Shown here: one piece after another, positions 14,082 to 18,629 of the stretch | How positions within the stretch are numbered: the stretch's first letter is position 1 | Layout of the letters: every line of letters begins with the position of its first letter | Virus record (IMG/VR): IMGVR_UViG_3300043410_000649 | Span: 1 to 23,671 of that record | From: a virus | DNA length: 23,671 nt | Strand: one strand, 5' to 3' | Made by a program: the position numbers and the translations under genes | Notes under the pieces: model-generated | Told to the model about the DNA's origin: nothing | What the model saw: the letters and a program-made list of their open reading frames with translations, nothing else | The model's database searches: none

Positions 14082-14698
14082 TAACAGTAGAACAATTCCA
14101 TCACTTATTCCCAAGAAACACTGATCCAGATGGATGGGTCTCTTCAATGAATGAAGTGTTTCCAACGTATGAGATTAATACACCACAACGTGTTGCTGCG
14201 TTCTTGGCTCAATGTGGTCACGAATCTGGTGGCTGGACTGTATTTGAAGAAAATTTAAACTATTCAGCTAAAGGTTTGAATAGTATTTTCAAGAAGTATT
14301 TTCCAACACTTGAATCTGCTCAACCATATGAACGCAAACCGCAAATGATTGCCAATAAGATTTATGCTAATCGTATGGGTAATGGCGATGAAGCTAGTGG
14401 TGATGGATATAAGTATCGTGGGCGTGGACCAATTCAATTAACTGGTAAGTCTAATTATACTCAATACGCAAAAGACATGTTTGACGATTGGGAAAATTTG
14501 GTGGAGAATCCAGATTGGGTAACTGAAGATAAAGACTTCGCTCTTATGTCAGCTATTTGGTTCTGGAATAAAAATGGTTTGAATAGAGAAGCAGACGCAG
14601 GTGATATCAAGACAATGACACGTAAGATTAATGGTGGATATATTGGACTTGAAGACCGAATTAAACATTACAATGAGGCAATACATTTACTAACATAA
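14078..14698 (+). CDS. GH19 endolysin (chitinase/lysozyme-like)
   Basis: A 206-residue glycoside hydrolase family 19 protein. FLAQCGHESGGW carries the catalytic Glu (about E49), a second acidic cluster follows in VFEENLNYSA (56-64), and YKYRGRGPIQLTGKSNYT (111-128) is the family substrate-binding signature. The domain fills the protein; there is no signal peptide, so it needs a holin or other route to the wall. It cleaves peptidoglycan glycan strands for lysis in phages. Overlaps its neighbours at both ends (ATGA, TAATG). Confidence 0.9.
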   Translation: MITVEQFHHLFPRNTDPDGWVSSMNEVFPTYEINTPQRVAAFLAQCGHESGGWTVFEENLNYSAKGLNSIFKKYFPTLESAQPYERKPQMIANKIYANRMGNGDEASGDGYKYRGRGPIQLTGKSNYTQYAKDMFDDWENLVENPDWVTEDKDFALMSAIWFWNKNGLNREADAGDIKTMTRKINGGYIGLEDRIKHYNEAIHLLT

Positions 14699-15348
14699 TG
14701 AAAACTTTTATACATCATGATTTTGCGAAACTAGAACGCATTACTACACCAGAGGTGAGGTTATATAAAACTCCCTCTGGTAATTCTTATCCATCTGTAA
14801 CTTCTGTCACAGGATTGCATACCGCTAAAGGTATTGCTGAGTGGAGAAAAAGAGTAGGAAATGAAGAAGCTAATAGAATTTCAGCAAGAGCCTCGTCAAG
14901 AGGAACACGTGTCCACCAACTGTGCGAAGATTATCTTAGATTTGGAAAAGCTGATGCGGACATATTCGATCAAGAAATGTTCGGATCAATCAAATTTCTA
15001 CTCGATCAGATTGACAACATCCACTGCTTGGAAACGCCATTATGGAGTGATCACTTACAAGTCGCTGGGACAGTTGACTGTATCGCAGAGTTCCAGGGTA
15101 AACTTAGTGTTATAGATTTTAAAACATCATCTCGTCCTAAAGATAGAGATGATATCCATAATTACTTTATGCAATGTGCTGCATATTCTGTTGCATTTGA
15201 AGAACGAACAGGAATTCCTATTGGAAGACTTGTAATTATTATGGCAGTTGACAACGAGGAACCAAGATGGTTTATTGAGAAGCGTGATAATTGGATCGGT
15301 GGATTTAAAAAGTTGCGTTTGGAATATAAAAATTTAAAAAATATTTGA
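14698..15348 (+). CDS. PD-(D/E)XK exonuclease (RecB/Cas4-like)
   Basis: A 216-residue nuclease with the full RecB-type motif set: H73 in RVHQLCE, E112 in LETPLW, D127 in VAGTVDCIAE, D140-F-K142 in SVIDFKTS, and Q159...Y163 in FMQCAAYS. These coordinate the metal and define an exonuclease of the type often found in T4-like aquatic phages. The first 60 residues (SYPSVTSVTGLHTAKGIAEWRKRVG) match the N-terminal part of these phage enzymes. It likely trims DNA ends in recombination or host DNA breakdown. Its TGA stop lies inside the -35 of the next promoter. Confidence 0.9.
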   Translation: MKTFIHHDFAKLERITTPEVRLYKTPSGNSYPSVTSVTGLHTAKGIAEWRKRVGNEEANRISARASSRGTRVHQLCEDYLRFGKADADIFDQEMFGSIKFLLDQIDNIHCLETPLWSDHLQVAGTVDCIAEFQGKLSVIDFKTSSRPKDRDDIHNYFMQCAAYSVAFEERTGIPIGRLVIIMAVDNEEPRWFIEKRDNWIGGFKKLRLEYKNLKNI

Positions 15349-15373
15349 CAAATATATAAAACTGGAGTATACT
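15345..15373 (+). promoter_or_regulatory. Sigma70-like promoter upstream of the tmRNA region
   Basis: TTGACA (15345-15350) contains the exonuclease stop. A 17-bp spacer ending GGAG is followed by TATACT (15368-15373). The predicted +1 is about 15380, after the ATG of the ORF at 15375. So it may chiefly serve the tmRNA about 200 bases on, or the ORF uses another start. Confidence 0.85.
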
Positions 15374-15374
15374 T

Positions 15375-15575
15375 ATGTTATATGTCGATTATAAGTTTGA
15401 CCTAAATGATAATATTATCATTTTTGATTCTGATTTAAAATTAACTACTCAGACCAATGAGAAGAAGTGGGGTAATTTACCACAAAGTTGGAAAGAGGGT
15501 GATATGTTTAAACTCATCACAGGTGCTAATGGTAATGTTACATTAGTTAAACTAACAACCGATGGTAAGATGTAA
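15375..15575 (+). CDS. Small hypothetical protein before the tmRNA
   Basis: A 66-residue protein, probably a small beta barrel (MLYVDYKFDLNDNIIIFDSDLKL, WGNLPQSWKEGDMFKLI, then VTLVKL). It looks like a real phage protein, but its ATG is two bases after the -10 hexamer and five bases before the predicted +1. It could be translated from readthrough of the upstream operon. It ends directly against the tmRNA acceptor piece. Confidence 0.62.
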   Translation: MLYVDYKFDLNDNIIIFDSDLKLTTQTNEKKWGNLPQSWKEGDMFKLITGANGNVTLVKLTTDGKM

Positions 15576-15643
15576 AGAATTGTTGTAATCCCTTCAAAGC
15601 GAAGGCATGTTGGACGAGGGTTCGATTCCCTCCACCTCCACCA

Positions 15644-15705
15644 GAAGTATATTGACGATCCGAGTATTCTGGAAGCAAACACGAAAGTGGCAATGTACTT
15701 CTGAT
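15644..15705 (+). other. Excised intervening segment of the permuted tmRNA
   Basis: It lies between the CCA end and the first G of the coding piece. Its ends pair: AGAAGTATATTG (15643-15654) with CAATGTACTTCT (15691-15702), 12 bp with one U-G pair, closing a 36-base loop. This helix stacks on the acceptor stem and would present both cut sites to tRNA-end processing enzymes such as RNase P and 3' exo/endonucleases. Confidence 0.8.
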
Positions 15706-15790
15706 GGGGGTGACCAGGTTTCGACAGCGTGAGATAGTAGAGACGGCAACACGGTAGGCGATGACCGTAAATCAAGCAAATAAAGTAAAT

Positions 15791-15823
15791 GCAAACGATA
15801 ATGTTTGGGCTCTTGCAGCGTAA
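15791..15823 (+). other. tmRNA tag reading frame (ANDNVWALAA)
   Basis: GCA resume codon, then AACGATAATGTTTGGGCTCT, TGCAGCG and TAA: ten codons, ending in Ala-Leu-Ala-Ala. ALAA ends are recognised by ClpXP/ClpAP in proteobacteria. The tag follows AGTAAAT, a usual context for the resume codon. It is close to the E. coli ANDENYALAA form. Confidence 0.92.
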
Positions 15824-15893
15824 GCTGACTTGACCTGAGGTTTCGCTGACTGTCCTTATTACCCAATCAGTCAGCACTTACATAGGAATATAA

Positions 15894-16979
15894 ATGACCG
15901 AAGTTATTGGTAGAAGTGTTTGGGATTACTCTGAGTTAATGTCTGATGAAAATTGGAAATATGCATTGACAGATTCCGATATCGAAGAGATTGATTCTGC
16001 CATCGCATATGTGATTAATAATCAAATACCTTTGGAGAGTTTGAATAAACAAAATTTCCCATTAAAACACTTATCAGAAAAACTGGAATATCTACTTCAG
16101 GAAATTAATACTGGTAGAGGTTTTGTTTATATTACAGGTCTGCCTGTTAAAAAGTATAATGAACTTGAATCAACAGTTGCTTATCTTGGATTAAGTGTTT
16201 ATCTTGGTAAACTTCGTTGCCACAATAGTCATGGTTGGATGATGAATCGTCTGATCGATATGGATAGAGATAAGAAAAATCCAAATACGTTGTTGGCACA
16301 AACGAGTATTGAGTTTACAACTCACACTGATAGTTGCGACATTGTTGGAATTCTTTGTATACAAAATGTTTCAAAAGAAAATGGTGGCGACACATACGTA
16401 GCAAGCAGTGGTGCGATTCATAATAAAATGTTAAATGATACACCAGAATTACTTGAACAACTATTTCATGAATTCCCTTGCGATCGTAGAGGACAAATTC
16501 CAGAAGGCAAGGATCCATGGTATATGATGCCTGTATTTTCTTGGTTTCATGGTAATTTAACTACTTGGTTCCACAGACAATATATAAATTTAGTACAAGG
16601 AATTTATCCAGAAGCTCCAAGGGTGACTGAGAAAGAGCAACTTGCATTAAAGACGTTCGAGAAAATATCAACTGATCCAAATTATATGATTAACTTTCAT
16701 ATAGAATCTGGTGATATGATTTTTATGAACAATCTAACAGTTGTTCATGGAAGAACTACTTGGCGTGATGGTGATAGCTTTGAGGACAAGCGATATCTAT
16801 ATCGTGTTTGGTTATGTCAAGAATCTGGCATTAAAATTCCAGATTGTTATAAAGATAGATGGGGATCTACAACCCCAGGAGATCGTGGTGGGTTTTATGG
16901 AAAACCTAACATCAAATATAAAGTTCCATCATTACAGGAAGTAATTGATGATACTGCTGCTACAGCAAAGAAAGGGTAA
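15894..16979 (+). CDS. 2-oxoglutarate/Fe(II) oxygenase, TauD/TfdA-like
   Basis: A 361-residue oxygenase with the complete facial triad: H144-x-D146 in FTTHTDSCDI and H285 in LTVVHGRTTW, followed by Arg304 (or R300) in KRYLYRVWL for binding 2-oxoglutarate. GGDTYVASSGAIHNKM and FHIESGDMIFMNN are usual for the TauD/clavaminate-synthase branch. The N-terminal 140 residues are the family's lid. AGGA lies 9 bases before the ATG, immediately after the tmRNA. Such enzymes hydroxylate small molecules, but phage relatives can also modify nucleobases or proteins. The substrate is unknown. Probably an auxiliary gene picked up from a host. Confidence 0.85.
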   Translation: MTEVIGRSVWDYSELMSDENWKYALTDSDIEEIDSAIAYVINNQIPLESLNKQNFPLKHLSEKLEYLLQEINTGRGFVYITGLPVKKYNELESTVAYLGLSVYLGKLRCHNSHGWMMNRLIDMDRDKKNPNTLLAQTSIEFTTHTDSCDIVGILCIQNVSKENGGDTYVASSGAIHNKMLNDTPELLEQLFHEFPCDRRGQIPEGKDPWYMMPVFSWFHGNLTTWFHRQYINLVQGIYPEAPRVTEKEQLALKTFEKISTDPNYMINFHIESGDMIFMNNLTVVHGRTTWRDGDSFEDKRYLYRVWLCQESGIKIPDCYKDRWGSTTPGDRGGFYGKPNIKYKVPSLQEVIDDTAATAKKG

Positions 16980-17557: not shown

Positions 17558-18115
17558 ATGCGAGTATATAAAAATATATTCCTAATCATCTTAGCAATGA
17601 TTGTCATGACTGTTACCGCAGTCGCTTATCAAAATGAATTTAAATTACTTGATGTTAAATATTCAGATTTAACTAAGGATGCCAAACGACAAGTAGATTG
17701 TTTAGCTGAAAACATTTATCACGAAGCTGGACATGAGGAACAAGAAGGAAAAGTGGCAGTCGCCATGGTAACATTAAATAGAACACAAGACCCAAGATAT
17801 CCTAAAGATATTTGTGGTGTTGTTAAACAAAAGGTAAACTTAACATGTCAGTTCTCTTGGTTCTGCATGCCAGTTACTTTAAATAAGAGAAGCGATAGAT
17901 ATCTAGAATCACTAGATGTTGCTTTACATGTTTATGCTAATTATGAAAAATTACATGACATGACCAAAGGTGCTTTATATTATCATGCTGATTATGTAAA
18001 CCCTAAATGGAAATTAGAAAAGACTGTTGTTATTGGTCGACATATATTTTATAAAGAAAGTGGTAAACATTATGATGCAAAAATTAAATCTACAACTAAA
18101 GGAAGACCAATCTAA
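17558..18115 (+). CDS. SleB-like cell-wall hydrolase
   Basis: A 185-residue protein. An N-terminal hydrophobic segment (residues 5-24, FLIILAMIVMTVTAVAY) is a signal anchor or signal peptide. The rest is the SleB/Hydrolase_2 domain: CLAENIYHEAGHEEQEGKVAVAMV (48-71) with catalytic Glu about E56, then LNRTQDPRYPKDICGVV, CQFSW (97-101) and GALYYHADYVNPKW (138-151). Such enzymes cleave the peptidoglycan glycan chain as lytic transglycosylases. The membrane segment suggests export through Sec or a SAR-type release. A second wall enzyme besides the GH19 endolysin. AAGGAG precedes the ATG. Confidence 0.88.
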   Translation: MRVYKNIFLIILAMIVMTVTAVAYQNEFKLLDVKYSDLTKDAKRQVDCLAENIYHEAGHEEQEGKVAVAMVTLNRTQDPRYPKDICGVVKQKVNLTCQFSWFCMPVTLNKRSDRYLESLDVALHVYANYEKLHDMTKGALYYHADYVNPKWKLEKTVVIGRHIFYKESGKHYDAKIKSTTKGRPI

Positions 18116-18629
18116 ACATTCGTTCTTCTTATTGATGGAAGACATTTCACTTACTACTTGTAAACAGGCTGTTGAGTGGATTCTAGAAGCCAATTTCTCA
18201 GAAGAACGTCCGAGTATGTTAAACCTAATCGTCTGCTCTCCAGGTGGCGATTTAAATGCTGCTTTTGCTTTAGTTGATACTATGCGTGGTTCTGCCATCC
18301 CAATCAGAACAATTGGTTTAGGTCAAATCGCATCAGCTGGTTTATTGATTTTCATTTCTGGCGACAAAGGACAAAGAATTTTGACTCCTAACACTTCAAT
18401 TTTATCTCATCAATATTCATGGGGTGCTTTTGGTAAGGAACATGAATTATTTGCCACAATTAAAGAATTTGATTTAACTACTAAACGTATGATTGCGCAT
18501 TATAAAAAATGCACTGGTATGGCAGAACAAAACATTCGTGATGTTCTATTACCACCACAAGACGTTTGGTTGTCTGCACAAGAAGCAAAGAAACATGGAT
18601 TATGCGATGATGTTAAAGATCTTAAGTAA
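18072..18629 (+). CDS. clpP: ClpP-like serine protease
   Basis: A 185-residue ClpP-fold protease, near the normal length of about 195. Catalytic Ser is S89 in GQIASAG, His is H113 in SILSHQYSW, and Asp is D164 in QDVWLSAQEA; all three are present. SPGGDLNAAFALVDTM (56-71) is the family's turn before the first catalytic helix. ClpP forms a 14-mer barrel that needs ClpX or ClpA to unfold substrates, including proteins with the tmRNA tag. It starts inside the SleB-like gene (two ATG in a row at 18072 and 18075). Related phage ClpP proteins are sometimes prohead proteases, an alternative role. No ATPase partner is visible nearby. Confidence 0.88.
   Translation: MMQKLNLQLKEDQSKHSFFLLMEDISLTTCKQAVEWILEANFSEERPSMLNLIVCSPGGDLNAAFALVDTMRGSAIPIRTIGLGQIASAGLLIFISGDKGQRILTPNTSILSHQYSWGAFGKEHELFATIKEFDLTTKRMIAHYKKCTGMAEQNIRDVLLPPQDVWLSAQEAKKHGLCDDVKDLK

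What the first reader, a model, noticed from the sequence alone, without database searches (positions are those of the whole stretch)
15580..15878. A phage genome carries a circularly permuted (two-piece) tmRNA gene
Seen directly: the T-arm, the 3' acceptor strand and CCA lie upstream of the GGGGGUG 5' strand, the GGUUUCGACA element and the tag ORF. The two acceptor strands are fully complementary with a G-U at the third pair, the alanine identity G3:U70. Permuted tmRNAs are established in alphaproteobacteria, some cyanobacteria and some betaproteobacteria. One-piece tmRNAs are known in a few phages. A permuted, apparently complete one in a T4-like phage is at least rare, and I know of no functional study.
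Basis: partly seen in the sequence, partly recalled or inferred. Interest (0 to 1): 0.92.

Follow-up and report, generated by a model that had tools for sequence, protein, structure and literature searches.

The report
Two-piece tmRNA gene in a phage
A T4-like virus of bacteria carries its own split ("two-piece") version of the RNA that rescues stuck ribosomes; such genes were already known in a few sea phages, but here it is a standard gene of a whole phage group, and in sister phages the spacer between its two pieces holds small protein-coding frames.

Summary
Window 15581-15878 holds a complete, circularly permuted tmRNA gene (Rfam tmRNA_permuted 152.8 bits against a cut-off of 47; beta_tmRNA 149.1 against 84; ARAGORN permuted, tag ANDNVWALAA). 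The implied novelty is mostly wrong: two-piece tmRNAs are published in phages, including the T4-like phages Melnitz and Mosig (PMC9004378). The window is a new member, of beta rather than alpha type. It is not a stray capture. At least 78 of 80 related IMG/VR loci carry it in the same slot, between the PD-(D/E)XK exonuclease and a phage ClpP/gp32; the other two end under 0.8 kb past the exonuclease. Selection is visible: compensatory changes in the acceptor stem across the two pieces, G3:U70 in all 122 distinct sequences, and a fixed ALAA tag end with synonymous codon turnover. None of 17 phage records encodes SmpB, so the RNA most likely works with host SmpB. The unexpected part lies in relatives: the intervening segment is an exchangeable cassette. 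In 13 of 44 long versions (0.2 expected) it is filled exactly by a small ORF ending in the TGA beside the acceptor. One such family is under purifying selection. The window has the short, ORF-less cassette. No expression data exist.

The parts
15345..15373 (+). sigma-70-like promoter TTGACA-17-TATACT upstream of the small ORF and tmRNA
   Evidence: 11 of 12 consensus positions; consensus match only (3 found, 2.5 expected in shuffles). In 56 of 121 relatives a TATAAT lies within 80 nt upstream of the first RNA piece, in most of them 11-19 nt upstream
15375..15575 (+). small ORF (66 aa) between exonuclease and tmRNA, unknown function
   Evidence: the ORF listing; relatives upstream of the tmRNA in some other clade members
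15581..15643 (+). piece 1 of the tRNA-like domain: P2 3' strand, T-arm, 3' acceptor strand, A73, CCA
   Evidence: RF04321 and RF01850 alignments; 63/63 identical to L095
15644..15705 (+). intervening segment (62 nt, no ORF), expected to be removed; terminal helix 15642-15654 with 15691-15703
   Evidence: fold -28.4 kcal/mol, z -4.4; helix covariation in 109 relatives; 61-nt match at 98% to L219/L167
15706..15790 (+). piece 2, first part: 5' acceptor strand GGGGGTG, D-loop-like GGTTTCGACA, P2 5' strand, pre-tag region
   Evidence: RF04321 alignment; 98% identical to L045
15791..15823 (+). tag reading frame ANDNVWALAA-stop
   Evidence: ARAGORN coding part 241-273 of the gene starting at 15551; tag conservation in relatives
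15824..15878 (+). 3' part of piece 2 with hairpin GCTGACTG...CAGTCAGC 15845-15875
   Evidence: beta_tmRNA model runs to 15882; fold
14698..15348 (+). PD-(D/E)XK exonuclease, conserved upstream neighbour
   Evidence: Pfam PF12705, PHROG 298
18075..18629 (+). ClpP-family protease, conserved downstream neighbour (ORF call 18027-18629); Ser/His/Asp positions present
   Evidence: Pfam PF00574; aligned to solved ClpP; found in all 14 clade records searched

Best explanation
The locus is a functional, phage-owned, circularly permuted tmRNA gene of beta type. It is transcribed as one precursor (a promoter-like site lies upstream). The intervening-segment helix stacks on the acceptor stem and holds the two pieces together while host tRNA-processing enzymes cut out the segment (inferred from known permuted tmRNAs), leaving a two-piece tmRNA joined by the acceptor and P2 pairings. 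Host alanyl-tRNA synthetase charges it through G3:U70, host SmpB carries it to ribosomes stalled on broken messages, and it adds ANDNVWALAA, which sends the fragment to Clp proteases: the host's, and possibly the phage's own ClpP with a host unfoldase. Its benefit would be keeping ribosomes free during infection, when phage nucleases create many stop-less messages. Gene identity and selection on it are shown; expression, processing and benefit are inferred.
For: Two covariance models and ARAGORN agree. Same slot and strand in at least 78 of 80 relatives. In 122 distinct phage sequences the acceptor pairs 7/7 with G3:U70 always, including compensatory GGGGATG/CATCTCC (17 sequences) and GGGGCAG/CTGCTCC (1), so the two separately encoded strands change together (my extraction favoured complementary strands, so the full 7/7 rate is partly selected for). 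Intervening-segment helix: 95% standard pairs against 65.5% (sd 1.2%) when partners are dealt anew, and 9 of 9 pairs show at least 3 Watson-Crick types. Tag: A9 and A10 invariant, A7 35/36 and L8 33/36, in 36 distinct tag DNAs, with several synonymous codons at each. Distances of piece 1 and piece 2 correlate (r 0.63) although the intervening segment separates them. No SmpB in 17 phage records. One tmRNA copy in each of 17 records.
Against: No expression, charging or processing data. Host unknown. The phage has no SmpB and no ClpX, so all partners must come from the host. Two contigs keep only a remnant of the gene, so it is not strictly indispensable.
Confidence: 0.75

Rival explanations
1. 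Re-routing module: the phage tmRNA works chiefly to mark proteins for the phage's own ClpP, encoded 1-3 kb downstream, changing what is degraded during infection.
For: ClpP present in all 14 clade records searched and mostly 1.0-3.0 kb downstream of the tmRNA; Ser, His and Asp of the triad aligned with solved ClpP, all three found by motif in 87 of 95 distinct clade sequences; a separate T4-type prohead protease exists in 14 of 17 records, so ClpP need not be the capsid protease.
Against: Melnitz, Mosig and HTVC008M have the tmRNA but no ClpP; no phage ClpX; tags keep the ordinary ALAA end that host ClpXP reads.
Confidence: 0.15
2. Decoy: the phage RNA competes with host tmRNA for SmpB and blocks ribosome rescue, as reported for the tag-less RNA of phage DS6A.
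For: A precedent is cited in PMC11915505.
Against: The DS6A form lacks a tag frame; here the tag frame is intact and its ALAA end is conserved through synonymous change, and all charging features are intact.
Confidence: 0.06
3. Passenger: a piece of host tmRNA gene picked up by imprecise excision of an element integrated in ssrA.
For: tmRNA genes are frequent integration sites (PMC11915505) and PMC9004378 discusses gene exchange with a prophage as a possible origin for Melnitz.
Against: Full length, syntenic across a whole clade, under selection; no integrase seen among the window proteins I scanned.
Confidence: 0.03

Closest known systems
Methylophilales phage Melnitz and Pelagibacter phage Mosig ssrA (two-piece phage tmRNA, PMC9004378)
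   Same: Permuted tmRNA in a T4-like phage, downstream of the PD-(D/E)XK exonuclease and upstream of gp32; closest cultured gp32 is Melnitz, 54.6% identity. HTVC008M also has an alpha-type copy.
   Different: Theirs score best as alpha_tmRNA (106.7 and 67.6 bits); this clade scores as beta_tmRNA. Melnitz has a glutamine riboswitch next to it, the window has none. They have no ClpP.
Betaproteobacterial permuted tmRNA (Rfam RF01850)
   Same: Same architecture and covariance model; ALAA tag end as in Accumulibacter/Rhodocyclus ANDERFALAA.
   Different: The intervening segment is 62 nt with encoded CCA here; in the 18 bacterial loci it is 29-49 nt and the third base of CCA is often C or T (my scan pattern limited segment length).
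Permuted tmRNA of Pseudomonas phages SM1 and PA_L9 (Samunavirus), Xanthomonas phage XacN1 and Synechococcus phage BUCT-ZZ01
   Same: Permuted; beta-type by covariance model where tested (SM1, XacN1, BUCT-ZZ01); tags ending in AA.
   Different: Unrelated or distant phages; SM1 has a 112-nt intervening segment without ORF; the gene is unannotated in SM1 and XacN1.

Membership tests
Permuted (two-piece) tmRNA | Permuted gene order: T-arm/3' acceptor/CCA upstream of 5' acceptor, D-loop-like and tag | tested here: met
   Sequence, RF04321 full-length match 1-213/213
Permuted (two-piece) tmRNA | Acceptor stem pairs across the two pieces, with alanine identity G3:U70 | tested here: met
   7/7 pairs in the window; G3:U70 in 122 of 122 distinct relatives, with compensatory variants
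Permuted (two-piece) tmRNA | Tag frame with Clp-type C-terminus and stop | tested here: met
   ANDNVWALAA-stop; conserved in relatives
Permuted (two-piece) tmRNA | Score above the curated cut-off | tested here: met
   152.8 against 47 bits
Permuted (two-piece) tmRNA | Mature RNA consists of two pieces, intervening segment removed | not testable with these tools
   Needs RNA end mapping
Permuted (two-piece) tmRNA | Works with SmpB | not testable with these tools
   No SmpB in 17 related phage records; host SmpB presumed
Beta-type permuted tmRNA (RF01850) | Best subtype model is beta rather than alpha or cyano | tested here: met
   Only beta reported after clan competition in the window and in the clade loci tested; alpha in Melnitz, Mosig, HTVC008M
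One-piece tmRNA (RF00023) | Contiguous 5'-to-3' order | tested here: not met
   Permuted order

The most novel reading that the evidence does not exclude
In these phages the intervening segment of the permuted tmRNA gene is a dedicated, exchangeable cassette that can carry a small protein gene between the two RNA pieces. Its ribosome-binding site lies in the 5' strand of the processing helix and its stop codon is the conserved TGA beside the 5' acceptor strand, so tmRNA maturation and expression of the nested gene would be coupled. The window carries the short, gene-less version, which matches at 98% the segment of a phage whose exonuclease is only 78% identical in protein sequence, while its nearest relative carries the 41-aa gene.
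Probability: 0.5. Interest if true: 0.75.

Novelty: new member of a known kind. Interest (0 to 1): 0.5.

Why it matters
It shows that phage-borne two-piece tmRNA is the rule, not an oddity, in a T4-like clade, and that alpha- and beta-type RNAs occupy an equivalent slot in related phages. That bears on the published claim that Melnitz's alpha-type tmRNA records a host switch: the slot may be old and its content replaced. If small genes really sit inside the intervening segment, permuted tmRNA genes are also a new kind of nested gene, and the reason why this odd permutation persists becomes open to test.

Tried and rejected
Glutamine riboswitch as in Melnitz: none in the window. Phage SmpB and ClpX: none. 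ClpP as the capsid protease: a separate T4-type protease exists in 14 of 17 records. Relatives of the TauD-like neighbour: none in phage records or viral contigs. A stricter genome scan with the phage-like TCTGATGG ending found nothing. Split-gene idea for the two remnant contigs: no T-arm piece elsewhere on the 32-kb contig. Nested-ORF proteins: no convincing Pfam or PHROG family and no match in cultured phages for the two tested. No structure prediction was run.

Full report
OBSERVATION. The finding stands. Positions 15581-15878 of the + strand contain, in order, the P2 3' strand, a T-arm (15616-15632), the 3' acceptor strand CACCTCC (15633-15639), A73 and CCA (15640-15643), a 62-nt intervening segment, the 5' acceptor strand GGGGGTG (15706-15712), GGTTTCGACA, a tag frame (15791-15823, ANDNVWALAA) and a 3' hairpin (15845-15875). 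Rfam's permuted model matches end to end with 152.8 bits (cut-off 47) and the beta-type model with 149.1 (cut-off 84). ARAGORN reports a permuted tmRNA with the same tag. The intervening segment folds into a 13-bp helix that stacks on the acceptor stem (-28.4 kcal/mol, z -4.4).

SETTING. The window is a complete 23.7-kb virus record. Its gp32 is closest among cultured phages to Methylophilales phage Melnitz (54.6%); PhoH, a PD-(D/E)XK exonuclease, a GH19 endolysin and a ClpP are also present. Near-complete relatives of 160-175 kb carry the T4-type prohead protease. This is a T4-like phage; its host is not known. A betaproteobacterial host is a guess from the tmRNA type.

WHAT IS KNOWN. Buchholz et al. 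2022 (PMC9004378) found 402 of 18,146 phage genomes with tmRNA, 133 unique structures, 53 of them two-piece by ARAGORN, mostly aquatic, and described Melnitz and Mosig. The 2025 tmRNA database paper (PMC11915505) lists 79 bacteriophage tmRNAs and made the RF04321 model. The window is therefore a new member of a known kind.

A CORE GENE. Of 80 IMG/VR loci found through the exonuclease, 76 have a permuted tmRNA by ARAGORN or motif. L240 has it by covariance model (124.5 bits) and L179 by motif. L201 and L244 end less than 0.8 kb past the exonuclease. Order and strand are constant: phoH, GH19, exonuclease, tmRNA, a small ORF, a cell-wall hydrolase, ClpP, gp32. Some of these loci come from the same or near-identical populations, so the effective number is smaller. 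In Melnitz and Mosig the tmRNA likewise lies downstream of the exonuclease and upstream of gp32, but those RNAs score best as alpha_tmRNA, whereas the clade scores as beta_tmRNA. Either an ancestral slot had its RNA replaced, or the same place was used twice; I did not resolve which.

SELECTION. In 122 distinct sequences the acceptor strands always pair and G3:U70 is always present, with compensatory variants that change both strands. My extraction favoured complementary strands, so the 7/7 rate is partly selected for, but the compensatory variants are not an effect of that. The intervening-segment helix shows 95% standard pairs over nine pairs in 109 sequences, against 65.5% (sd 1.2%) when partners are dealt anew, and all nine pairs show three or more Watson-Crick types; sliding the partner drops pairing to 42-54%. 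In 36 distinct tag DNAs the final AA never changes and the preceding AL almost never, while codons do. A TATAAT lies within 80 nt upstream of piece 1 in 56 of 121 loci, in most of them 11-19 nt upstream; in the window a TTGACA-17-TATACT lies before a small upstream ORF.

PARTNERS. No SmpB (0 of 17 records) and no ClpX (0 of 17), but ClpP in 14 of 14 clade records and in none of Melnitz, Mosig, HTVC008M and C48C1. Ser, His and Asp of ClpP align with solved ClpP, and all three are found by motif in 87 of 95 distinct clade sequences. A tag-and-degrade module is attractive but not shown, because other phages have the RNA without ClpP.

MOSAIC STRUCTURE. Pieces of the window's tmRNA have different nearest relatives: piece 1 is 63/63 identical to L095, the intervening segment 98% to L219/L167, piece 2 98% to L045, and tag plus hairpin 100% to L218/L222/L315. 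Exonuclease distance predicts piece 1 weakly (r 0.20) and piece 2 hardly (r 0.05, 62 of 500 permutations as high), while pieces 1 and 2 agree with each other (r 0.63). The slot is inherited; the sequence appears to be shuffled between phages.

NESTED ORFS IN RELATIVES. Among 44 distinct intervening segments of 100 nt or more, 13 are filled by an ATG frame that starts 10-14 nt after CCA, mostly behind an AAGGA-like site, and ends exactly in the TGA of the TGAT beside the 5' acceptor strand; 0.2 are expected from shuffles. They fall into at least six dissimilar peptides (41, 47, 52, 54, 62 and 64 aa); a seventh, from L310, is a 34-aa frame with little to recommend it. Others have frames that end slightly earlier or read on into the RNA. 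The 41-aa family has five variants with pS 0.69-0.88 against pN 0.11-0.28 in the divergent pairs, the mark of a translated gene; the 62-aa family is too similar to judge. The helix is kept (7-9 of 9 pairs in all these cases). Two later scans asked for TGATGGGG at the segment end, which favours but does not create frames ending there; the shuffles kept that ending. The held literature mentions only a tRNA and a repeat inside such segments. This does not occur in the window itself, whose segment is short and ORF-less, but its nearest relatives L095 and L096/L173 have it.

VERDICT. A real, complete, conserved permuted phage tmRNA: a known kind with new breadth. Function as trans-translation with host SmpB is the best reading (0.75). 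The nested-gene cassette in sister phages is the part a specialist would not expect.

Noticed in passing
L095, L096, L107, L300, L305 (41 aa); L155, L189, L208 (62 aa); L126 (52 aa); L205 (54 aa); L284 (47 aa); L321 (64 aa): Small ORFs exactly filling the intervening segment of permuted tmRNA genes, 13 of 44 long segments against 0.2 expected; the 41-aa family shows purifying selection.
   Followed up: partly
L139 and L135 (contigs G022, G021); L273:1399-1545: tmRNA remnant in the usual slot: T-arm piece gone, 5' acceptor strand, tag (ANDNYAPFEIALAA by eye) and 3' hairpin kept; the missing piece is not elsewhere on the 32-kb contig.
   Followed up: partly
window 15894-16976: TauD-family dioxygenase directly after the tmRNA hairpin; no relative found in cultured phages or IMG/VR contigs, so a likely recent cargo gene.
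   Followed up: partly
L255 (Xanthomonas phage XacN1): Unannotated permuted tmRNA in two equal-scoring copies (37231 and 356026), with a GOLLD RNA (227 bits) about 1 kb away.
   Followed up: no
L041, L043 (Pseudomonas phages SM1, PA_L9): Permuted tmRNA in Pseudomonas phages (beta-type by model in SM1), although Pseudomonas itself has the one-piece form (general knowledge); unannotated in SM1.
   Followed up: no
L114, L122, L185, L213: T-loop variant TGCAAAT occurs together with D-loop variant CAGTATTCGAC, suggesting coordinated change between the two pieces.
   Followed up: no
L137 intervening-segment ORF; L116:696-818; L051:7228-7341: A small ORF found inside the intervening segment in one phage has homologues just upstream of the tmRNA gene in others.
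   Followed up: no
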